A stretch of DNA of 8,614 nucleotides, from the NCBI GenBank assembly GCA_948560485.1, contig CAOXUF010000033.1, positions 2,177-10,790 of the forward strand, in the 5' to 3' direction. The notes under the pieces were generated by a model that saw only the letters and a list, made by a program, of their open reading frames with translations, was not told the origin of the DNA and made no database searches. Below, piece by piece: positions 1 through 8,545 of the stretch (position 1 is its first letter; the number at the start of each line of letters is the position of its first letter). The translations under genes and the position numbers were made by a program. This stretch comes from an uncultured Eubacterium sp. GTDB taxonomy: Bacteria; Bacillota_A; Clostridia; Lachnospirales; Lachnospiraceae.

Positions 1-22
1 CAGACGTGTGCTCTTCCGATCT
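1..22 (+). other. Illumina sequencing adapter remnant at contig edge
   Basis: The first 22 bases, ending in GCTCTTCCGATCT, match the 3' end of the standard Illumina TruSeq/multiplexing adapter exactly. They are not genomic DNA. An apparent GTG start at position 8 and the first five codons read from it (MLFRS) come from the adapter and should not be annotated as protein. Genomic sequence begins at about base 23. This also shows that the window starts at the physical end of an assembled short-read contig. Confidence 0.97.
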
Positions 23-857: not shown

Positions 858-2147
858 CTATTCCACTGCTTTAAATGCCTCATCCAAATCCTCAAGAATG
901 TCATCAATATTTTCTGTTCCAATAGACAGTCTGATTGTGTTTGGCTTGATATCCTGTTCCAATAATTCTTCCTGTGTGCACTGACTGTGAGTCGTTGTTG
1001 CCGGATGAATTACCAGAGACTTTGAATCCGCTACATTTGCTAACAATGAGAATAACTGCAAGTTATCAATAAATTTATGTGCTTCTTCCTGTCCACCCTT
1101 TATATTGAATGTAAAAATACTTGCCCCGCCATTTGGGAAATATTTCTCATATAGTGCATGATCCGGATGTTCTGGAAGTGATGGATGATTTACCTTTTCT
1201 ACCAACGGATGATTTGATAAATATTCTACTACCTTCTTTGTATTTTCATTATGTCTATCGATACGAAGTGACAATGTCTCTGTTCCCTGCAATAACAAGA
1301 ACGCATTAAATGGTGAAATTGCCGCTCCGGTATCTCTTAAAAGAATTGCTCTAATGTATGTAGCAAATGCTGCCGGTCCTGCTGCCTCTGTAAATTTCAC
1401 CCCATGATAACTTGGGTTTGGTTCTGAAATTCCAGGATATTTACCAGAAGCTGCCCAATCAAATGTACCACCGTCTATTATCACACCACCAAGAGATGTA
1501 CCATGTCCACCAATAAACTTCGTAGCAGAATGCACTACGATATCTGCCCCATGTTCAATTGGTCTGATTAAATATGGTGTACCAAAAGTATTGTCTACTA
1601 CGACCGGAAGTCCATGTTTATGTGCAATCTCTGCAATCGCATCAATATCCGGAATATCACTATTTGGATTTCCAAGTGTTTCTAAATAAACTGCCTTTGT
1701 ATTTTCCTGTATTGCACCTTCTACCTCTTCCAAATTATGAGCATCTACAAAAGTAGTATGAATCCCATAATTTGTAAGTGTATGTGCCAGAAGATTTGAT
1801 GTTCCACCATAAATTGTTTTTTGTGCAACAATATGTTCTCCAGCACTAGCCAATGCCTGAATCGTATAAGCAATGGCTGCCGCTCCTGATGCAACTGCAA
1901 GACCTGCTACACCACCTTCTAATTTTGCAATTCTGTCTTCAAAAACTCCCTGTGTAGAGTTTGTAAGTCTTCCATAAATGTTTCCTGCGTCTGCCAGACC
2001 AAATCTTGCTGCCGCATGTGCAGAGTCTCTAAATACATATGATGTTGTCTGATATATCGGAACCGCTCTGGCATCTGTTGCCGGATCCGGATTTTCCTGT
2101 CCTACGTGTAACTGTAATGTTTCAAATTTATAATTTCTCTTGCTCAT
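858..2147 (-). CDS. metY: O-acetylhomoserine aminocarboxypropyltransferase (sulfhydrylase)
   Basis: This is a PLP enzyme of the Cys/Met metabolism family (fold type I) that joins O-acetylhomoserine and sulfide (or methanethiol) to give homocysteine (or methionine) in the cytoplasm. The 429-residue length is typical of MetY and longer than the roughly 380-400 of MetB/MetC. The N-terminal FETLQLHVGQ and AVPIYQTTSYVF, the YGR phosphate-binding triplet (58-60), Y113 of TIYGGT, VVVDNTF (D185) and the PLP lysine K210 in HSATKFIGGHG are all present. The C-terminal NIDDILEDLDEAF is also characteristic. AGGAG lies 9 nt before the ATG. The gene starts 48 bp after cysK with no terminator between, so the two are probably cotranscribed, pairing the cysteine and homocysteine routes of sulfide assimilation. 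It could also have minor O-acetylserine activity, as some homologues do. Confidence 0.95.
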   Translation of the reverse strand: MSKRNYKFETLQLHVGQENPDPATDARAVPIYQTTSYVFRDSAHAAARFGLADAGNIYGRLTNSTQGVFEDRIAKLEGGVAGLAVASGAAAIAYTIQALASAGEHIVAQKTIYGGTSNLLAHTLTNYGIHTTFVDAHNLEEVEGAIQENTKAVYLETLGNPNSDIPDIDAIAEIAHKHGLPVVVDNTFGTPYLIRPIEHGADIVVHSATKFIGGHGTSLGGVIIDGGTFDWAASGKYPGISEPNPSYHGVKFTEAAGPAAFATYIRAILLRDTGAAISPFNAFLLLQGTETLSLRIDRHNENTKKVVEYLSNHPLVEKVNHPSLPEHPDHALYEKYFPNGGASIFTFNIKGGQEEAHKFIDNLQLFSLLANVADSKSLVIHPATTTHSQCTQEELLEQDIKPNTIRLSIGTENIDDILEDLDEAFKAVE

Positions 2148-2195: not shown

Positions 2196-3128
2196 CTACT
2201 GAAAGAGAGCCGTGCTGTAGTATCTGTCTCCTGAATCAGGAAGCAGTGCAACAATTTTCTTTCCTTTGTTTTCCGGTCTCTTTGCCAGTTCTGTTGCTGC
2301 AAACAATGCTGCTCCTGATGAAATTCCAACCAAAACACCTTCTGTTTTTGCAATTGCTTTTCCTGTTTCAAAAGCGTCTTCATTCGCAACTGGTATAATT
2401 TCATCATAAATTTCTGTATTAAGTACATCCGGAACAAATCCTGCGCCGATTCCCTGAATCTTATGCGCTCCTGCTCTTCCTTCCGAAAGCACTGGGCTGT
2501 CCTTTGGTTCTACTGCTACAACTTTTACATTTGGATTCTTTGATTTTAAATATTCTCCAACACCCGTAATTGTTCCACCGGTTCCTACGCCTGCTACAAA
2601 AATATCAATCTCTCCGTCTGTATCTTCCCAGATTTCCGGACCTGTCGTCAACTTATGAACTTTAGGATTTGACGAATTTATAAACTGTCCAAGAATAACA
2701 GCCCCCGGTGTTTCGTTCTTTATCTCCTCTGCCTTAGCGATAGCACCTTTCATTCCTTTCGAACCTTCTGTAAGAACAATTTCTGCTCCATATGCTTTAA
2801 TAATATTTCTTCGCTCAACACTCATTGTCTCCGGAATGGTAATAACGACTTTATAACCTTTTGTTGCTGCAACCGCCGCAATACCAATTCCCGTATTTCC
2901 AGATGTCGGTTCAATCAATGTTGCTCCCGGCTTAATTCTGCCACTCTCTTCTAGATCCTGTATCATCTGAAGTGCCACTCTATCCTTGACGCTTCCTGCC
3001 GGATTAAAACATTCCAACTTTACTAAAATCTCTGCCTCCGTCGCATCTGCATTTCTCTGATAATTTTCCACCAGCAAAAGAGGGGTCTTCCCTATTAACT
3101 CTAACGCACTTTTTTTTATGTCTGACAT
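2196..3128 (-). CDS. cysK: Cysteine synthase A (O-acetylserine sulfhydrylase)
   Basis: This fold type II PLP enzyme converts O-acetylserine and sulfide to cysteine. It has 310 residues, the usual length, with all landmarks intact: IGKTPLL near the N-terminus, the Schiff-base lysine K48 in NPAGSVKDR, the substrate loop EPTSGNTG (73-80), the phosphate-binding GTGGT (182-186), GISSG (269-273) where serine contacts the PLP ring nitrogen, and the C-terminal SGDRYYSTALF. The ending is of CysK type without a C-terminal CBS domain. GGAGG lies 9 nt upstream of the ATG. It is the first gene of a cysK-metY operon. Its promoter region holds two CC-N13-GG dyads like the one before iscS, suggesting control by an Rrf2-family regulator such as the one encoded at 7584-7994. 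Confidence 0.96.
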   Translation of the reverse strand: MSDIKKSALELIGKTPLLLVENYQRNADATEAEILVKLECFNPAGSVKDRVALQMIQDLEESGRIKPGATLIEPTSGNTGIGIAAVAATKGYKVVITIPETMSVERRNIIKAYGAEIVLTEGSKGMKGAIAKAEEIKNETPGAVILGQFINSSNPKVHKLTTGPEIWEDTDGEIDIFVAGVGTGGTITGVGEYLKSKNPNVKVVAVEPKDSPVLSEGRAGAHKIQGIGAGFVPDVLNTEIYDEIIPVANEDAFETGKAIAKTEGVLVGISSGAALFAATELAKRPENKGKKIVALLPDSGDRYYSTALFQ

Positions 3129-3163: not shown

Positions 3164-3180
3164 CCTATTAATTTAGTAGG
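3164..3180. promoter_or_regulatory. Putative Rrf2-type operator, cysK proximal dyad
   Basis: The 17-bp element CCTAT-N7-GTAGG has AT-only flanks (AATT before, TTTT after on the + strand). It fits CC-N13-GG, the geometry described for IscR type 2 sites (CC-NYA-N7-TRN-GG), and the half site read as ATAGGAATT resembles the CymR box. It lies roughly 11-27 bases downstream of the predicted start of cysK transcription and 36 bp upstream of the start codon, a position suited to repression. Function is inferred. Confidence 0.55.
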
Positions 3181-3197
3181 TTTTAATCACTGTTAAA

Positions 3198-3226
3198 ATA
3201 ATACCATCTTTTTCCTATCTTTGCAA
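3198..3226 (-). promoter_or_regulatory. Predicted sigma-A promoter of cysK-metY
   Basis: On the - strand TTGCAA (3221-3226) and TATTAT (3198-3203) are separated by exactly 17 bp, giving 4/6 and 5/6 matches to the -35 and -10 consensus. The predicted transcript starts near 3191 with a leader of about 60 nt. The -35 hexamer lies inside the upstream 17-bp dyad (3214-3230), so binding there would compete with RNA polymerase. Confidence 0.55.
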
Positions 3227-3230
3227 TAGG
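3214..3230. promoter_or_regulatory. Putative Rrf2-type operator, cysK distal dyad
   Basis: The element CCTAT-N7-ATAGG has perfect 5-bp arms and 17-bp overall length, flanked by T runs on both sides of the + strand. It overlaps the predicted -35 of cysK. Its centre (3222) is 50 bp from the centre of the proximal dyad (3172), close to five helical turns, so two bound dimers would lie on roughly the same face of the DNA. Confidence 0.55.
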
Positions 3231-3315
3231 TTTTTAAATTTTAATTAAAATAAATGTCATTTTCATTTTACATATTTTTATAATGTAATGCTACTATATT
3301 TTTTTATGTACTAAC

Positions 3316-3347
3316 AAAAAAACATGAAAGACTTCTCCCTCATGTTT
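3316..3347 (-). terminator. Rho-independent terminator after the DUF2383-like gene
   Basis: On the - strand AAACATGA (3347-3340) pairs with TCATGTTT (3327-3320) across a 12-nt loop, and the second arm runs into seven T (3322-3316). It starts about 20 bases past the stop codon at 3368. It isolates the cysK promoter from the upstream transcript and may be the final terminator for the iscS-iscU-mnmA operon if transcription reads through. Confidence 0.75.
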
Positions 3348-3367
3348 CTTCGCCTAATATTCGATAT

Positions 3368-3799
3368 TTATAAAAACTTTTCCATGTGTCCCATAAACTC
3401 TTTTTCTGTTTTTACCAACTGATGTGCAATCCTTTTTGCTTCTTCGGAAGCATTGCTATAATCATTTTCATATTCACAGATAGACTGAATCCCCATATTA
3501 CATCCATCCATCATCAACTTCGCTGCCTGATGATTGTCTCCCATAAAAGTCATTTTCATTTCAGTAGTCAAATGAGACATGACACTTGCCATTAAGCCCG
3601 GTTCCTTTCCATTCTCCCCTGCATCCTGCAGTAAATGTACTGTCCTTGCTTTAATCTGCTTATGTTTATCCTTATATTCTTCAATAATATTTTTCATCTG
3701 ACTATCATGTAATTTTTCTTCAACTTGTTCCATACTTCCTATTGCCATCTTACAACCGGAATTACACTCTTTTAGCAATTTAATTGTATCCTCGTTCAT
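3368..3799 (-). CDS. Small Met-rich helical protein, DUF2383/ferritin-like
   Basis: This 143-residue cytoplasmic protein has no signal peptide or membrane segment. It is nearly all predicted helix, about four long amphipathic stretches (roughly 3-30, 33-60, 67-88 plus 90-113, and 117-142), which suggests a four-helix bundle of the DUF2383/PA2169 type in the ferritin-like group. That assignment rests on length and pattern, not on a diagnostic motif. No clear ferritin diiron ExxH pair is seen. The protein has 14 methionines, and cysteines at 12, 16 (CNSGC), 100 and 108. The start is set by GGGAGG a few bases before the ATG at 3799; a start at 3826 would lack this site. It lies 77 bp downstream of mnmA on the same strand, possibly in the same transcript. 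Function unknown. Confidence 0.7.
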   Translation of the reverse strand: MNEDTIKLLKECNSGCKMAIGSMEQVEEKLHDSQMKNIIEEYKDKHKQIKARTVHLLQDAGENGKEPGLMASVMSHLTTEMKMTFMGDNHQAAKLMMDGCNMGIQSICEYENDYSNASEEAKRIAHQLVKTEKEFMGHMEKFL

Positions 3800-3829
3800 A
3801 TTACCTCCCGGGTGTATCAAACCCAAACT

Positions 3830-3854
3830 AAAAAAATTAATGATTTTTATTAAT
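3830..3854 (-). terminator. Weak AT-only hairpin after mnmA
   Basis: On the - strand ATTAAT (3854-3849) and ATTAAT (3841-3836) form a 6-bp A/T-only stem followed by a run of T. Such a stem is weak, so it is at most a partial terminator for the iscS-iscU-mnmA transcript. Some readthrough into the gene at 3368-3799 is likely. Confidence 0.3.
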
Positions 3855-3876
3855 ATTTACAAGTATACAGATTTTA

Positions 3877-4959
3877 TTACATTATTTCAGTTTTCACAAT
3901 ACAGCCTCCGCCAAGAACTATTTCCCCATTATATAATACAACCGACTGTCCTTTTGTAATTGCACGAATAGGCTCATCAAATGTAATTTTTACATTACCA
4001 TTATCCAATACCTCTGCCACTCCCTCTGTCAATGGTTGATGATATCTGGTTCTTCCACTAATTCGAATGGGTTCTTTTGGAATCTCCCCTGAAATCCAAT
4101 TGAAATCTGCAGCAATTAATTCTGTTGAAAATAAATCTTTATTTCTTCCTACTACAACCTCATTTGTTTCCGGTTTGATTTCTAGCACATAATGTTTTCC
4201 ATCGCGATTCACATTAATTCCTTTTCTCTGACCAACTGTATACCGATAATATCCGTTATGTTGTCCAATTACTTTTCCGTTAATATCTAAAAAATTACCC
4301 TTTCCAACTTTTTCATTCGTGTAATTTTCAATAAACTGCATATGATTGCCATCAGGGATAAAACATATATCCTGGCTATCATGTTTATCTGCATTAATTA
4401 ACTGATACTTATCAGCAATTTTTCTGATTTCCTCCTTAGTATATTCACCGAGCGGGAGCATAGTATGTGCCAGCTGCTCCTGGGTCATATAATACAGAAC
4501 ATAACTTTGATCTTTTGAATCATCCACACCTTTTAATAACTCATATTTTTTTGTTTCCTGATTAAATCTGATTCGTGCATAATGTCCGGTAACAATCACG
4601 TCACATTCTAATTCTTTTGCCCGACGGTCTAACTCATTAAATTTCAGATAACGGTTACAGTCTACACAAGGATTTGGTGTCATACCGCATTTGTAACAAC
4701 TCACAAATTTGTCCATAACTTTTTCCCTAAATTGTGCTTTAAAATTAAACACGTAATATGGAAAACCAAACTTATGGGCAATACTTCTGGCATCTTCTAT
4801 ATCACTTAAAGAACAACAGGTCTTTTCCTGAGACATATTTAAATCTTCATTATCATAAAGTTTCATTGTAACGCCTATAGGCTCGTATCCTTTTTCTTTC
4901 ATAAACACGGCAGCAACACTACTGTCTACACCACCGCTCATTGCAATCAGTGCTTTCAT
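3877..4959 (-). CDS. mnmA: tRNA-specific 2-thiouridylase MnmA
   Basis: MnmA adenylates and then thiolates C2 of the wobble uridine U34 in tRNAs for Lys, Glu and Gln, using sulfur that originates from a cysteine desulfurase. With the start at 4959 the protein is 360 residues, the normal length. AAGGA sits 7 nt before this ATG, while the in-frame ATG at 4995 has no site. The PP-loop SGGVDSS lies at about residues 8-14. The catalytic region TPNPCVDCNRYLKF has C98 and C101, and QDICFIPDG has C199, so this is the CxxC plus Cys version rather than DxxC. That three-cysteine set has been reported to hold an Fe-S cluster in some MnmA proteins. An additional pair, C88 and C91 (CYKC), lies just ahead. 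The gene follows iscU by 72 bp, which fits sulfur or cluster delivery within one operon. Confidence 0.96.
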   Translation of the reverse strand: MKALIAMSGGVDSSVAAVFMKEKGYEPIGVTMKLYDNEDLNMSQEKTCCSLSDIEDARSIAHKFGFPYYVFNFKAQFREKVMDKFVSCYKCGMTPNPCVDCNRYLKFNELDRRAKELECDVIVTGHYARIRFNQETKKYELLKGVDDSKDQSYVLYYMTQEQLAHTMLPLGEYTKEEIRKIADKYQLINADKHDSQDICFIPDGNHMQFIENYTNEKVGKGNFLDINGKVIGQHNGYYRYTVGQRKGINVNRDGKHYVLEIKPETNEVVVGRNKDLFSTELIAADFNWISGEIPKEPIRISGRTRYHQPLTEGVAEVLDNGNVKITFDEPIRAITKGQSVVLYNGEIVLGGGCIVKTEIM

Positions 4960-5031
4960 AAATTCATCCTTCATCACGGCATAGCCATTATTCATATTTC
5001 ACTAACATACTACCCCAATTGAATGATTTTA

Positions 5032-5406
5032 TCAACACGATTTTTTCATCTGATAATCCTCAATCGCACACTTAATAGCTTCTTCTGCCAATACCGAACA
5101 ATGTATCTTATGAGCAGGCAGCCCCTCAAGCGCCTCTACTACAGCCTTATTCGTCAATTCCAATGCCTGATGAACCGGCTTTCCCTTTATCAATTCAGTT
5201 GCCATTGAACTGCTGGCAATAGCAGAACCACAACCAAATGTCTGAAACTTCACATCAGATATCACCCCATTATCTACCTTAATATAGATTTTCATAATAT
5301 CTCCACACTTGGCATTTCCTACTTCACCAATACCATCTGCATCATCAAGTTTTCCTACGTTTCTAGGATTCATAAAATGATCCATTACTTTCTCACTATA
5401 TAACAT
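5032..5406 (-). CDS. iscU: Fe-S cluster assembly scaffold IscU/NifU-like
   Basis: This is the scaffold on which [2Fe-2S] and [4Fe-4S] clusters are built from iron and the persulfide sulfur of cysteine desulfurase. The 124-residue protein is a single IscU domain without the C-terminal NifU extension. The three cluster cysteines are C34 (NAKCGD, with D36), C59 (FGCGSA) and C103 (HCSVLAEEAI, preceded by H102). Two further cysteines, C113 and the terminal C124, are not family ligands. The loop recognised by HscA in proteobacteria (LPPVK) reads LPAHK here, and no hscA/hscB is visible, so it probably works without the dedicated chaperones. GAGGAG lies 4 nt before the ATG, and the gene begins 23 bp after iscS. 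In Clostridia it is often annotated nifU. Confidence 0.95.
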   Translation of the reverse strand: MLYSEKVMDHFMNPRNVGKLDDADGIGEVGNAKCGDIMKIYIKVDNGVISDVKFQTFGCGSAIASSSMATELIKGKPVHQALELTNKAVVEALEGLPAHKIHCSVLAEEAIKCAIEDYQMKKSC

Positions 5407-5429
5407 AAAAACTCCTCTCGTTTATTGTC

Positions 5430-6617
5430 TTATTCATTATTTGTTTCTTTTTGTTTCGTAATCTGTTCCCACATTGGAGAAATACTTCTAAGATACTCCA
5501 CCACTTCTTTTGTCTGCTCTACAATATAGTCCATTTCTTCCATGGTATTTTCAGAACTTATTGTCAGCCTCAGAGAACCGTGAGCGACCTCATGAGGTCT
5601 TCCAATTGCCAGAAGAACATGGCTGGGTTCCAACGAACCGGATGTACATGCTGAACCGGATGAAGCAAAAATACCTCTGGAATCTAACAACAACAATAAA
5701 GATTCCCCTTCAATTCCCTCAAAAATGTAATTCACATTTCCGGGTAATCTGTTTTTCCAGTCACCATTTAACATCGAATGACTGATTTCAGACAGCCCCA
5801 CAATCAACCTGTCTCTTAAAGCAGTCTCTTTTCGGGCATTTTCTTCTAAATGACTACATGCTTCTTTCAAAGTTTCTGCCATACCTGCAATTCCCGGAAG
5901 ATTTTCCGTACCCGCACGTTTTCCCCGCTCCTGCGCTCCTCCTTCAATAATATTTGTAAGAGGAAGATTTTTTCTAACATATAATGCTCCCACCCCTTTT
6001 GGCCCATGAAATTTGTGGGATGATAGTGACAACATATCAATATTTAATTTTTTTACATCAATTTCTACATGGCCTGCTGCCTGAACCGCATCTGTATGAA
6101 AGATAATTTCTTTTTCTCTGCATATTCTCCCAATCTCTCCAATAGGCTGTATCGTCCCAATCTCATTATTTGCAAACATAACTGTCGCGAATGCTGTATC
6201 TTCTCTAATTGCATCAACAAAATCTTCTACTCTGATAATTCCATCTTCCGGTACATCCAATAGCGTTACTTCAAAACCTTTCTTTTCTAATTTTTTTAAT
6301 GTATGGAGTACTGCGTGATGTTCTATTTTCGTCGAAATAATATGTTTCTTCTTATTTAAAAGACCAATTTCTGCTGCCGAGATAATCGCCTGATTATCTG
6401 ACTCAGTCCCTCCTGACGTAAAATATACTTCTTTAAATTCTGCTCCAATACAATCAGCAACATCCTTTCTTGCTTTTTCAAGTATTTCCTTAGCTTTCTG
6501 TCCCATACTGTGCAGACTCGAAGGATTACCATATACATCCTTCATTATATTTAAAACAGTTTCCACTGCTGACTTACTCATTTTTGTTGTAGCAGCATTA
6601 TCAGCATATATATACAT
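5430..6617 (-). CDS. iscS: Cysteine desulfurase, IscS/NifS class I
   Basis: This PLP enzyme removes sulfur from cysteine, leaving alanine and an enzyme persulfide that feeds IscU and MnmA. It has 395 residues. The start at 6617 (MYIYADNAATT) is chosen because GGAGG lies 7 nt upstream and the family begins at this YxDNAATT strand. A longer reading from 6722 would cross the promoter. Visible landmarks are TSGGTESDN (68-75), H101 over the PLP ring, the Schiff-base lysine K202 in SSHKFHGPKG, RAGTEN (234-239), and the catalytic C324 in the flexible loop SSGSACTSG, which marks class I (IscS/NifS) rather than SufS. It is first in an iscS-iscU-mnmA operon with a near-consensus promoter overlapped by an Rrf2-type dyad. 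nifS is the usual name in many Clostridia annotations. Confidence 0.96.
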   Translation of the reverse strand: MYIYADNAATTKMSKSAVETVLNIMKDVYGNPSSLHSMGQKAKEILEKARKDVADCIGAEFKEVYFTSGGTESDNQAIISAAEIGLLNKKKHIISTKIEHHAVLHTLKKLEKKGFEVTLLDVPEDGIIRVEDFVDAIREDTAFATVMFANNEIGTIQPIGEIGRICREKEIIFHTDAVQAAGHVEIDVKKLNIDMLSLSSHKFHGPKGVGALYVRKNLPLTNIIEGGAQERGKRAGTENLPGIAGMAETLKEACSHLEENARKETALRDRLIVGLSEISHSMLNGDWKNRLPGNVNYIFEGIEGESLLLLLDSRGIFASSGSACTSGSLEPSHVLLAIGRPHEVAHGSLRLTISSENTMEEMDYIVEQTKEVVEYLRSISPMWEQITKQKETNNE

Positions 6618-6633
6618 ATTGTTTCCTCCTTTT

Positions 6634-6656
6634 ATTCCTATCGTTTCACTAGGAAT
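6634..6656. promoter_or_regulatory. Putative Rrf2/IscR-type operator of iscS
   Basis: ATTCCTA (6634-6640) and TAGGAAT (6650-6656) form a perfect 7-bp inverted repeat with a 9-bp spacer. Its 17-bp core (6637-6653) is CCTAT-N7-CTAGG, the same CC-N13-GG form as the two dyads before cysK. It overlaps the -10 box by two bases, covers the expected transcription start and ends 4 bp upstream of the ribosome binding site, an arrangement that would repress when occupied. Confidence 0.65.
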
Positions 6657-6683
6657 TATACTTCTGTTTTTTAAATTTGTAAA
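6655..6683 (-). promoter_or_regulatory. Sigma-A promoter of iscS-iscU-mnmA
   Basis: On the - strand TTTACA (6678-6683) and a perfect TATAAT (6655-6660) are separated by 17 bp. Transcription should start near 6648, giving a leader of about 30 nt. A promoter this strong needs a repressor if expression is to be adjusted, and the overlapping dyad provides a site. Confidence 0.85.
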
Positions 6684-6844: not shown

Positions 6845-7540
6845 TTGAAGATTAAAATTTTTAGTTTTATGTTATTATTGTTTATATGTACAGCTACTAC
6901 ATTTACAATAAAAGCTGACACTCAGCCAATAACTACGAACAAATCAATAAAAGTAAATAAAAACACAAAATTATATAAAATACTTAAAGTTAAGAAAAGT
7001 ACAATGAAGAACTACACTATCACATCAAGCAAACCTAAAGTTGCTTCTGTTTCATCGACAGGTGTAGTCAAAGGATTAAAAAAAGGTTCTTCTACAATCG
7101 AACTGCTTTCAAAATCAACTGGTACAGCTTTTGCTAAAGTTAAAATTAAAGTTAAAAACAAATATAACAAGGCTGAATTAAGATTAATGTCATCAATCAT
7201 TTTCAGCGAAGCCGGCAGCGAGTGTTTTGCTGGAAAAAAAGCTGTTGGAATTGTTATCATGAACCGCATAAAATCAAAAAGTTTTCCAGGCTCTTTAAGC
7301 GGGGTTATTTATCAGCCATACCAGTTCGGTCCTGTTAGAAACGGCTCATTAAGCCGCTCCCTTTCCTTATATGACAGCGGAAGATTAAACAATGACTGTA
7401 TTAAAGCAGCAAAATTAACATTAAATGGAGACAAAAAAGTAAAATACAGAAATAAAACAATTGATATGTCCAGTTACTTATTCTTTAGTGGATATGTCAG
7501 TGGAGCAAGATTATCAATTCAGAATCATCAATTTAAATAA
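6845..7540 (+). CDS. Secreted BIG2-domain cell wall hydrolase (SleB-like)
   Basis: This 231-residue exported protein starts with a TTG codon. AGAGG lies 5 nt upstream, and this start supplies the lysines of the signal peptide (MKIK, then a hydrophobic stretch to about residue 20, likely cleavage after A24 in TIKA). Residues about 34-103 are an Ig-like BIG2 domain (TSSKPKVASVSSTGVVKGLKKGSSTI), which usually mediates cell surface or wall contact. Residues about 111-231 match Hydrolase_2, the SleB/CwlJ catalytic domain: IIFSEAGSE with probable catalytic E122, AVGIVIMNRIKSKSFP, and QFGPVRNG. The ending SIQNHQF corresponds to the family's GNHxF. It probably cleaves peptidoglycan during growth or in spore-related processes. 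It lies between the Rrf2 gene and the isc operon but on the opposite strand, and no role in sulfur metabolism is evident. Confidence 0.88.
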   Translation: MKIKIFSFMLLLFICTATTFTIKADTQPITTNKSIKVNKNTKLYKILKVKKSTMKNYTITSSKPKVASVSSTGVVKGLKKGSSTIELLSKSTGTAFAKVKIKVKNKYNKAELRLMSSIIFSEAGSECFAGKKAVGIVIMNRIKSKSFPGSLSGVIYQPYQFGPVRNGSLSRSLSLYDSGRLNNDCIKAAKLTLNGDKKVKYRNKTIDMSSYLFFSGYVSGARLSIQNHQFK

Positions 7541-7587
7541 AATAAAAGAGTTCGCTTCAATTTAATTTGCGAACTCTTTTATTTTAT
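7537..7587. terminator. Symmetrical bidirectional terminator containing both stop codons
   Basis: Bases 7537-7555 and 7569-7587 are perfect reverse complements (19 bp) around a 13-nt loop. The GC-containing core GAGTTCGC is flanked by A runs on one arm and T runs on the other, so both strands get a hairpin with a U-rich tail. The TAA of the hydrolase gene (7538-7540) and the TAA of the Rrf2 gene (7584-7586) sit at mirror positions and pair with each other in the stem. Confidence 0.9.
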
Positions 7588-7994
7588 ATTCTTTTATTTA
7601 TCACATCATCTAATGTAACGCTGTCAAGATATTTATCAATAATATGATTTAATTCTTTCCAAAGTGGCAGCGTGACACAATCTTTTGCTCTTTCACAAGC
7701 TTCAGCTCCTTCTTCTAAACACATAACCGGAGCTAATGTACCTTCTGTAAGTATTAAAATTTCACCTACCGTATATTCTGATGGAGTCTTGGCTAATTTA
7801 TATCCTCCCGTTTTTCCTCTTTGGCTGCGTACCATATTTCCCTTATTAAGCATCGACACAATCATCTCTAAATATTTCATAGATATATTCTGTCTCTCTG
7901 CAACATCTTTTAACGAAACAAAATTTTCATCTCCGTTCTGAGCCAGATCTATCATTACACGAAGAGCATATCTTCCTTTTGTTGAAATCATCAT
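7584..7994 (-). CDS. Rrf2 family transcriptional regulator, IscR-like
   Basis: This is a 136-residue winged-helix DNA-binding protein. The N-terminal STKGRYALRVMIDLA, the recognition-helix region QNISMKYLEMIVSML and the wing RGKTGGYKLAK are typical of Rrf2 proteins (IscR, CymR, NsrR). Three cysteines follow, C92, C100 and C106, in a C-x7-C-x5-C pattern close to the cluster ligands of IscR (C-x5-C-x5-C). The histidine that follows the third cysteine in E. coli IscR is replaced here by leucine, so the fourth ligand is unclear. It probably senses Fe-S status, though a CymR-like cysteine-sensing role is possible given the nearby cysK. GAGGTG lies 7 nt before the ATG. The start overlaps the PAP2 stop codon as ATGA, so translation is likely coupled. 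Predicted targets are the CC-N13-GG dyads at cysK and iscS. Confidence 0.92.
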   Translation of the reverse strand: MMISTKGRYALRVMIDLAQNGDENFVSLKDVAERQNISMKYLEMIVSMLNKGNMVRSQRGKTGGYKLAKTPSEYTVGEILILTEGTLAPVMCLEEGAEACERAKDCVTLPLWKELNHIIDKYLDSVTLDDVINKRI

Positions 7995-8545
7995 AATATT
8001 TCACCTCTGTTCTGTTTTTTTGCAATAAAAGCACTGATAATTCTATTTCCTGCATAATATGTTGCCATTCCGATAATCACCCCTAATACTGCTCCGCCTA
8101 AAACATCTGTAGGAAAATGAACATATAAATATAATCTGGAAAAAGCAATTCCTGCTGCAAGTGGAATTACTATCCATCCCCACTCTTTTCTATAAAGCGT
8201 TATAATTGTTGCTGCTATCACAGATGCCTGTGTATGCCCCGATGGGAATGAATAATCTTTTGGCACAGATATTAACATATTAAATTCTGTGTCAAGCCAG
8301 CACGGTCTTGGTCTTGCCACCAGATTCTTCAAAATTCCATTGCCAATAATCAATCCAAGCAATAACCCTACAAGGACTAAAAACCCTATTTTACGATGTT
8401 TCTTACTTATCAGCAAAACAACACCTATTACTATCCATATAGCACCGGCATTTCCTAACATAGTGATTCTTGGCATAAGCCAATCCATAAATCCACTACT
8501 TAGCATACTTTGTATTTTATCTAATATTGTCCAATCAATCGCCAT
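7991..8545 (-). CDS. PAP2 family membrane phosphatase
   Basis: This is an integral membrane phosphatase of the PAP2 superfamily, 184 residues with about five hydrophobic segments (about 33-47, 52-70, 106-118, 123-141, 147-165). All three catalytic motifs are intact: K73-x6-R80-P81 (KNLVARPRP), P101-S-G-H104, and S136-R137-x5-H143-x3-D147. Relatives dephosphorylate undecaprenyl diphosphate (BcrC/PgpB type) or phosphatidic acid; the sequence alone does not decide between them. The start at 8545 is preferred because AGGA lies about 7 nt upstream; the ATG at 8551 would be too close to it. It is the promoter-proximal gene of a PAP2-Rrf2 pair. A TATAAT at 8594-8599 could be its -10, with the -35 outside the window. 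Confidence 0.9.
   Translation of the reverse strand: MAIDWTILDKIQSMLSSGFMDWLMPRITMLGNAGAIWIVIGVVLLISKKHRKIGFLVLVGLLLGLIIGNGILKNLVARPRPCWLDTEFNMLISVPKDYSFPSGHTQASVIAATIITLYRKEWGWIVIPLAAGIAFSRLYLYVHFPTDVLGGAVLGVIIGMATYYAGNRIISAFIAKKQNRGEIL

What the first reader, a model, noticed from the sequence alone, without database searches (positions are those of the whole stretch)
3164..6656. Shared 17-bp CC-N13-GG dyads link cysteine synthesis to Fe-S assembly and tRNA thiolation
Three dyads of one form, CCTAn-N7-nTAGG, occur at 3164-3180, 3214-3230 and 6637-6653, and I see none elsewhere in the window. All three fall in promoter regions of sulfur genes and overlap or flank predicted promoter elements. 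The geometry equals the IscR type 2 site (CC-NYA-N7-TRN-GG), and an Rrf2 protein is encoded at 7584-7994. If the same protein binds all three, it would adjust cysteine production (cysK-metY) and cysteine desulfuration (iscS-iscU-mnmA) together, merging roles that CymR and IscR hold separately in better-known bacteria.
Basis: partly seen in the sequence, partly recalled or inferred. Interest (0 to 1): 0.75.

Follow-up and report, generated by a model that had tools for sequence, protein, structure and literature searches.

The report
One switch for cysteine and iron-sulfur
A gut-type bacterium carries the same short DNA switch site in front of its cysteine-making genes and its iron-sulfur and tRNA-sulfur genes, and the site is kept in place in its relatives, so one regulator probably tunes both; it is a variant of regulators known from other bacteria and has not been tested in the lab.

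Summary
The three dyads are real and behave as conserved operators. In the genus, 21 of 22 iscS genes have an exact CCTA-N9-TAGG upstream; spacing N9 gives 23 sites against 2 at all other spacings tested (cysK: 21 against 1). A 21-bp form hits 24 places in 21 of 23 genomes, all 24 upstream of cysK or iscS. Of 44 sites, 24 enclose a -35 hexamer, 12 start 1 bp after TATAAT, 8 are second sites downstream at cysK. The genome has one Rrf2 over the cut-off, from a clade with three invariant cysteines and a recognition-helix lysine seen in 41 of 41 clade rows and 0 of 34 other rows. In a subclade iscS-iscU-metY-cysK run together behind one dyad beside rrf2. Joint control is well supported by comparison; protein binding and the signal are untested. 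Cysteine-Fe-S links in clostridia are partly in print (PMC2940859, PMC3828012).

The parts
3214..3230 (-). distal cysK dyad CCTATTGCAAAGATAGG (minus strand), enclosing the -35 hexamer
   Evidence: 12 other genus members have the equivalent site with TTGACA inside
3198..3226 (-). predicted cysK promoter TTGCAA-17-TATTAT, TG before the -10
   Evidence: consensus match only
3164..3180 (-). proximal cysK dyad CCTACTAAATTAATAGG, 50 bp from the distal one, downstream of the predicted start of transcription
   Evidence: exact second dyad in 8 genus genomes including G000, 41 or 49-50 bp on
2196..3128 (-). cysK (cysteine synthase A)
   Evidence: TIGR01139 445.2 bits, cut-off 350.95
858..2147 (-). metY (O-acetylhomoserine/O-acetylserine sulfhydrylase), follows cysK
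   Evidence: TIGR01326 627 bits, cut-off 495.1
6655..6683 (-). predicted iscS promoter TTTACA-17-TATAAT
   Evidence: 11 of 12 matches
6637..6653 (-). iscS dyad CCTAGTGAAACGATAGG, starts 1 bp after TATAAT and ends just upstream of the ribosome-binding site
   Evidence: a dyad 1 bp after TATAAT in 12 genus genomes including G000
5430..6617 (-). iscS/nifS-type cysteine desulfurase (start at 6617 set by me from the ribosome-binding site and the MYIYAD start)
   Evidence: over the cut-off for NF002806 (332.2, cut-off 304); just under for TIGR03402 (528.3, cut-off 530.75)
5032..5406 (-). iscU/nifU-type scaffold
   Evidence: TIGR03419 215.9 bits, cut-off 187.9
3877..4995 (-). mnmA (tRNA 2-thiouridine synthase), same strand behind iscU; co-transcription inferred
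   Evidence: NF001138 437.5 bits, cut-off 284
7584..7994 (-). Rrf2 regulator with CX7CX5C and recognition helix SMKYLE; the presumed repressor
   Evidence: PF02082 133.6 bits; only Rrf2 over the cut-off in G000
8097..8113 (-). fourth exact CCTA-N9-TAGG, inside PAP2 coding sequence (PTDVLG); judged a decoy
   Evidence: a near-copy at about the same distance from rrf2 in G013

Best explanation
The three dyads are operators of the single Rrf2 protein at 7584-7994. As a dimer it would bind WWWWCCTA-N9-TAGGWWWW and repress two promoters: at cysK-metY by covering the -35 hexamer, with a second dimer just downstream of the start; at iscS-iscU-mnmA by covering the start of transcription. When the repressing form falls, cysteine synthesis and cysteine desulfuration rise together. 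The three conserved cysteines make an iron-sulfur cluster the likeliest sensor (IscR-like), joined to a cysteine-centred regulon (CymR-like). Shown by computation: the sites, their conservation, spacing, overlap with promoter-like hexamers, gene linkage, and that this is the only Rrf2 gene found over the cut-off. Inferred: binding, repression, dimerisation, the cluster and the signal.
For: Sites and chance. Spacing: 23 N9 sites in 22 unique genus iscS upstream regions against 2 at all other spacings 2-19; 21 in 28 unique cysK-type upstream regions (paralogues included) against 1. Without using CCTA: WWWCC-Nk-GGWWW gives 34 at k=13 and 0-3 at each other k from 5 to 21. Separate set: iscS loci of genome contigs (80 loci; IscS ORF recovered in 70): upstream of IscS 34 sites at N9, 0-3 at other spacings except 10 at N17; none upstream of 54 IscU or 10 MnmA ORFs (divergent rrf2 and iscS share sites, so those counts overlap). 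Specificity: 24 of 24 genus hits upstream of cysK or iscS, reversed control 1; 80 hits in 73 of 299 family genomes, control 0. Promoter overlap. One Rrf2 over the cut-off in the genome (the second, sub-threshold hit lies in an ORF that reads as MarR-like). Gene run with divergent rrf2. Clade: 41 of 41 rows keep the three Cys and the helix Lys; 36 of 36 Rrf2s of genome contigs too. No Rfam match, hence no known riboswitch or T-box, in the window at gathering threshold.
Against: No binding or expression data. Genus exceptions: cysK of G002 and G009 without an exact dyad (in G009 cysK-metY is followed by an Rrf2 without the triad), iscS of G006 with a 1-mismatch site only, no iscS upstream region recovered for G002. 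Only 30 of 69 genome contigs iscS genes with enough upstream DNA have an exact site; the strict 23-bp form occurs in only 73 of 299 family genomes, and not in G000 itself. Plain CCTA-N9-TAGG and looser forms are not clearly enriched genome-wide. Seven genus members have a second Rrf2 without the triad, with dyads in front of it, and one cysK next to such an Rrf2 (G027) has a dyad, so the site may be read by more than one Rrf2. The fourth IscR ligand, His, is absent (Leu).
Confidence: 0.74

Rival explanations
1. The dyads are bound by a regulator of another family, or by a second Rrf2 that the assembly misses, and the Rrf2 at 7584-7994 controls other genes.
For: The window Rrf2 gene is not next to the dyads (a cell-wall hydrolase gene, 6845-7540, lies between); no exact dyad outside coding DNA was seen upstream of rrf2 itself.
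Against: Genome 98.87% complete with one Rrf2 over the cut-off; Rrf2-type CC-N13-GG geometry; in relatives rrf2 is divergent from iscS with the dyad between them; G022 (99% complete) also gives one hit to this Rrf2 and keeps dyads at both promoters.
Confidence: 0.13
2. The dyads act as RNA or as promoter sequence: leader hairpins or mere promoter constraint, without a repressor.
For: Two dyads lie at or downstream of the predicted start, and one overlaps the -35.
Against: The distal cysK dyad is upstream of the start and would not be transcribed; a 4-bp stem with a 9-base loop is weak (reading; not folded); the N9 spacing and A/T flanks are kept in sites of all three positions; no Rfam match.
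Confidence: 0.05
3. CymR-type mechanism: the Rrf2 works with CysK as corepressor and senses O-acetylserine/cysteine, the three cysteines being structural or redox thiols rather than cluster ligands.
For: Site looks like the CymR box (recalled); the family-wide targets are mostly cysteine genes; B. subtilis CymR is controlled by CysK (passages of PMC3828012 and PMC9239247); the His ligand of E. coli IscR is absent.
Against: The triad is kept in 41 of 41 clade rows and in 0 of 15 rows of the CymR-like group; of five cysK genes next to an Rrf2 without the triad, four (G009, G036, G038, G048) lack an exact dyad and one (G027) has it.
Confidence: 0.3

Closest known systems
CymR (Bacillus/Staphylococcus cysteine repressor)
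   Same: Rrf2 family; controls cysK and other cysteine genes; CC-N13-GG palindrome with CC-K-A-T half-sites and AATT flanks (consensus recalled; not found in a held paper)
   Different: Window protein has three conserved cysteines that B. subtilis CymR (2y75) lacks; scores under the CymR model cut-off (112.9 against 195); its sites also front iscS-iscU-mnmA
IscR (E. coli; Thermincola potens)
   Same: Three cysteines in the same region; best PDB hit is 4cic, 99.5 bits (that 4cic is T. potens IscR is recalled); controls iscS-iscU; site geometry and A/T flanks as type 2
   Different: Under the IscR model cut-off (126.7 against 207.55); CX7CX5C not CX5CX5CX2H (form from PMC9218516 passage); no His; inner operator bases CCTA not CCxYA; sites also at cysteine synthesis
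Cpe1786 and the rrf2-iscS-iscU-trmU cluster of Clostridium perfringens
   Same: Same gene set next to an Rrf2 protein; the four genes rise 3- to 6-fold on cysteine limitation, and the authors name the Rrf2 as candidate (PMC2940859, passages)
   Different: There cysK is under a T-box; no operator is described in the passages seen
CAC2236 (CymR-like) and CAC1675 (IscR-like) of C. acetobutylicum
   Same: Predicted CymR-like sites at both genes; similarity of IscR and CymR motifs noted (PMC3828012, passages)
   Different: Two separate Rrf2 proteins there, one found in the window's genome

Membership tests
Rrf2 superfamily | Rrf2 domain over cut-off | tested here: met
   PF02082 133.6 bits, cut-off 30; TIGR00738 136.1, cut-off 73.3
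IscR | equivalog model TIGR02010 over cut-off 207.55 | tested here: not met
   126.7 bits
IscR | three cysteines in the cluster loop | tested here: met
   CX7CX5C; 41 of 41 clade rows; spacing differs from CX5CX5C
IscR | His as fourth ligand (CX2H) | tested here: not met
   Leu in the window protein; clade rows Leu 36, Val 2, Phe 2, Ile 1; the 19 other rows Lys 12, Arg 6, Gln 1
IscR | [2Fe-2S] cluster that controls DNA binding | not testable with these tools
   needs purified protein
IscR | type 2 site WWWWCCxYA-N7-TRxGGWWWW | tested here: not met
   geometry and flanks met, inner YA not; 0 exact type 2 matches in 50 unique genus regions; consensus from a passage of PMC4055776
CymR | equivalog model NF047409 over cut-off 195 | tested here: not met
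   112.9 bits
CymR | CymR box (recalled CCKAT-N7-ATMGG with AATT flanks) at cysteine genes | tested here: inconclusive
   six half-sites: K 6/6, A 6/6, T 4/6 (sequence); the consensus is from memory
CymR | complex with CysK | not testable with these tools
   needs an interaction assay

The most novel reading that the evidence does not exclude
In this family an IscR-like Rrf2 clade with a cysteine triad and an SxKYLE helix has taken over the cysteine master-regulator role, so iron-sulfur cluster status directly gates cysteine synthesis, Fe-S assembly, tRNA thiolation and, in some genera, glutamate-cysteine ligase and amino-acid uptake, through one CCTA-N9-TAGG operator; the clade's lysine has shifted specificity from CCxYA to CCTA.
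Probability: 0.45. Interest if true: 0.68.

Novelty: new variant of a known kind. Interest (0 to 1): 0.52.

Why it matters
Cysteine is the sulfur donor for Fe-S clusters and tRNA thiolation and is harmful in excess. None of the library searches made here listed a paper that I could identify as settling the cysteine regulator of this bacterial family. One operator and one candidate regulator make the question directly testable: if a cluster-bearing Rrf2 controls cysteine synthesis, cluster status rather than O-acetylserine would set the cysteine supply.

Tried and rejected
Whole-genome scans of G000 with looser motifs gave background: 95 hits against 67 control and 39/51 against 69/56. I read the context of only a small part of these places, apart from the dyads themselves (13 loci; five loci); most lie in coding sequence and I recognised no sulfur gene downstream. 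The 20 exact sites: 3 are the dyads, 14 lie in ORFs (one the PAP2 copy), and 3 (L006, L113, L116) are outside clear genes or in a doubtful ORF, each within a longer inverted repeat of another kind (reading). Helical phasing of the paired cysK dyads (41 or 49-50 bp; 41-52 with 1-mismatch sites) was considered, but the iscS pairs are 34 bp apart, so no claim is made. The in-frame TAA flagged in rrf2 of eight genus members is, in the two read (G001, G020), only a slightly earlier natural end. The CymR consensus was sought in print without success. Structure prediction was not run, sequence matches to solved IscR and CymR being strong already.

Dropped or missing rows: three Rrf2 loci (L198, L252, L276) were not recovered by my ORF caller and are absent from the tree; Rrf2 hits of G043 and G050, fragments in G012, G027 and G046, and the second Rrf2 of L261 were not put in it; G037, G056 and G059 gave no Rrf2 hit. 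The tree used the quick method with few columns; 32 of 73 inner branches are open. In one search iscS of G000, G006, G008 and G010 shows no dyad, because for G000, G008 and G010 the ORF caller took a start upstream of it; resets the starts (G006 stays without an exact one). 10 of 80 genome-contig loci gave no IscS ORF.

A check of this report against the calls (78, 79 made for it) changed: 'cystine-type' uptake to amino-acid-type (no model over its cut-off), the count of sulfur-related family targets, the list of genomes with one gene run, and the term 'cysteine-less'.
Full report
What is there. The window carries, on the minus strand, cysK-metY and iscS-iscU-mnmA, and an Rrf2 regulator gene. 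The three dyads are at the stated places. With up to one mismatch the window has 7 matches against a shuffle mean of 1.69; in the two intergenic stretches that hold the dyads (466 bases) 20,000 dinucleotide shuffles gave a mean of 0.0012 exact matches and never 3. G000 (2.48 Mb, 98.87% complete) has 20 exact matches against 30 for the reversed pattern. Of these 20, with four A/T on both sides 4 remain, three of them these dyads, the fourth in an ORF.

Anatomy. The predicted cysK promoter is TTGCAA-17-TATTAT with the -35 inside the distal dyad and the proximal dyad 50 bp on; the predicted iscS promoter is TTTACA-17-TATAAT, with the dyad starting 1 bp after it and ending before the ribosome-binding site. 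Both arrangements suit a steric repressor; repression itself is inferred.

Conservation in the genus (G000-G022). iscS was recovered in 22 of 23 genomes; 21 of 22 have at least one exact dyad upstream, G006 a 1-mismatch site. A cysK orthologue with its own dyad was found in 13 genomes; G002 and G009 have a cysK without an exact dyad. In six genomes (G001, G003, G011, G015, G020, G021) cysK lies about 1.8 kb behind iscS on the same strand and contig (in G003 only the end of iscS is on that contig); the genes between are iscU and metY where read (G001, G020), one dyad enclosing TTGACT precedes iscS, and rrf2 is divergent. G018 has the same iscS promoter but its cysK is on another contig; no cysK was recovered for G017. 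Spacing: N9 23 against 2 (iscS) and 21 against 1 (cysK-type, 28 regions with paralogues) over spacings 2-19. Because that pattern came from the sites, I also tallied WWWCC-Nk-GGWWW: 34 at k=13, 0-3 elsewhere; position 4 is A in 67 of 68 half-sites; no exact IscR type 2 site. The 44 exact sites fall in three kinds: 24 enclose a -35-like hexamer (13 cysK, 11 iscS) with a hexamer matching TATAAT at 4-6 of 6 places 17 bp on, 12 start 1 bp after TATAAT (iscS), 8 are second cysK sites. A 21-bp form with TTGACA inside, up to 1 mismatch, hits 24 places in 21 of 23 genomes (reversed control 1), all 24 upstream of cysK or iscS; G000 and G002 have none in that form.

Wider sets. Around iscS relatives of genome contigs (80 loci), 36 Rrf2, 12 MetY and 15 CysK ORFs lie on the same loci. 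Upstream of 70 IscS ORFs: 34 N9 sites, 0-3 at other spacings except 10 at N17; 36 Rrf2: 14, and 7 at N17; 12 MetY: 7; 15 CysK: 1; 54 IscU and 10 MnmA: 0 (divergent genes share sites). By gene, 30 of 69 iscS with enough upstream DNA have an exact site. In 299 family genomes the strict 23-bp form has 80 hits in 73 genomes and no control hit. All 80 were fetched and sorted by script. The first gene downstream is MetY-type in 33 (seven of them at only 201-312 bits, so truncated or more distant), IscS in 11, CysK in 8, Rrf2 in 1, other in 24, none in 3; two of the 'other' are MetY behind a short spurious ORF. The rest include 2 glutamate-cysteine ligase family proteins (Pfam), one SufC (308.9 bits, cut-off 212.8) and 8 solute-binding proteins of the SBP_bac_3 or NlpA kind (6 scanned; L354 and L389 by reading), whose substrate is not established: the one checked fits no amino-acid model over its cut-off. 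Fourteen are of other kinds or unassigned (L339, L349, L350, L351, L353, L360, L365, L370, L373, L375, L392, L394, L396, L408). So 58 of 80 are plainly cysteine or Fe-S related, 66 with the solute-binding proteins.

The regulator. G000 has one Rrf2 over the cut-off; the other hit, 22.8 bits, lies in an ORF that reads as MarR-like. The protein reaches neither the IscR nor the CymR equivalog cut-off. In a quick tree it lies in a 40-row group (support 99) of Rrf2s, some next to iscS, some next to cysK or metY, apart from a group without the cysteine triad (15 rows, 5 of them next to cysK) and from the other iscS-linked Rrf2s. With G051 added (41 rows), the three cysteines and a helix lysine (SxK) are invariant; the lysine is in 0 of 15 CymR-like and 0 of 19 other rows, and in 36 of 36 genome contigs Rrf2s with the triad. 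By position it aligns with Ser40 of E. coli IscR. A table fragment in PMC9338935 lists an S40 against base 5 of the half-operator, but I could not tell from the passage which protein is meant, so a role in the CCTA preference is conjecture.

Who binds. Of five cysK genes next to an Rrf2 without the triad (G009, G027, G036, G038, G048), four lack an exact dyad. But seven genus members (G004, G006, G007, G008, G010, G012, G019) have a second Rrf2 without the triad and with dyads upstream, in five followed by a gene that reads as glutamate-cysteine ligase, and the IscR-like rrf2 of G036 and G048 also has exact dyads upstream. The site is therefore probably shared more widely among clostridial Rrf2 proteins. 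In G000 and G022 only the protein with the triad was found.

What is known. Cysteine limitation raises rrf2-iscS-iscU-trmU expression in C. perfringens, and the authors proposed the Rrf2 protein as mediator (PMC2940859, passages). Similarity of IscR and CymR motifs in C. acetobutylicum is in print (PMC3828012, passages). In C. difficile the iscR-iscS2-nifU genes appear in an iron study's table (PMC6311696, passage). I found no paper that joins cysK-metY and iscSU-mnmA under one Rrf2 operator in this family (searches, seen as listings, with passages of ten papers), but the library lacks most subscription journals and regulon databases such as RegPrecise (recalled), so it may be recorded there.

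Verdict. Real, conserved operators; joint control very likely; regulator identity likely; sensing unknown. A new variant of a known kind, of moderate interest.

Noticed in passing
window 1-22: The window begins with what looks like an Illumina adapter remnant (adapter sequence recalled); 15 of 43 differences from G000 fall in its first 21 bases.
   Followed up: partly
window 6642: One of the 28 remaining window/G000 differences lies in the N7 spacer of the iscS dyad; the half-sites of all three dyads are unchanged.
   Followed up: yes
L055, L063, L073, L079, L080, L095 and others, upstream of iscS, rrf2 or metY: An extra TAGG half-site 8 bp beyond the dyad, between -35 and -10 (CCTATTGACA..TAGG....TAGG), accounts for most of the N17 peak; role unexplained.
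   Followed up: partly
L269, L270, L271, L272, L275, L278, L279: In seven genus members a second Rrf2 without the cysteine triad carries dyads upstream; in five (L269-L272, L275) a gene that reads as glutamate-cysteine ligase follows.
   Followed up: partly
L374, L389, L414: Dyad-fronted genes encode solute-binding proteins that fuse SBP_bac_3 and NlpA domains (L374, L414 by Pfam; L389 by reading); substrate unknown.
   Followed up: partly
L294 (G007:C17) and L375 (G026:C1): CysK paralogues lie amid genes that read as nitrogenase-like components in L294; in L375 a nitrogenase component 1 type gene (PF00148) follows a dyad.
   Followed up: no
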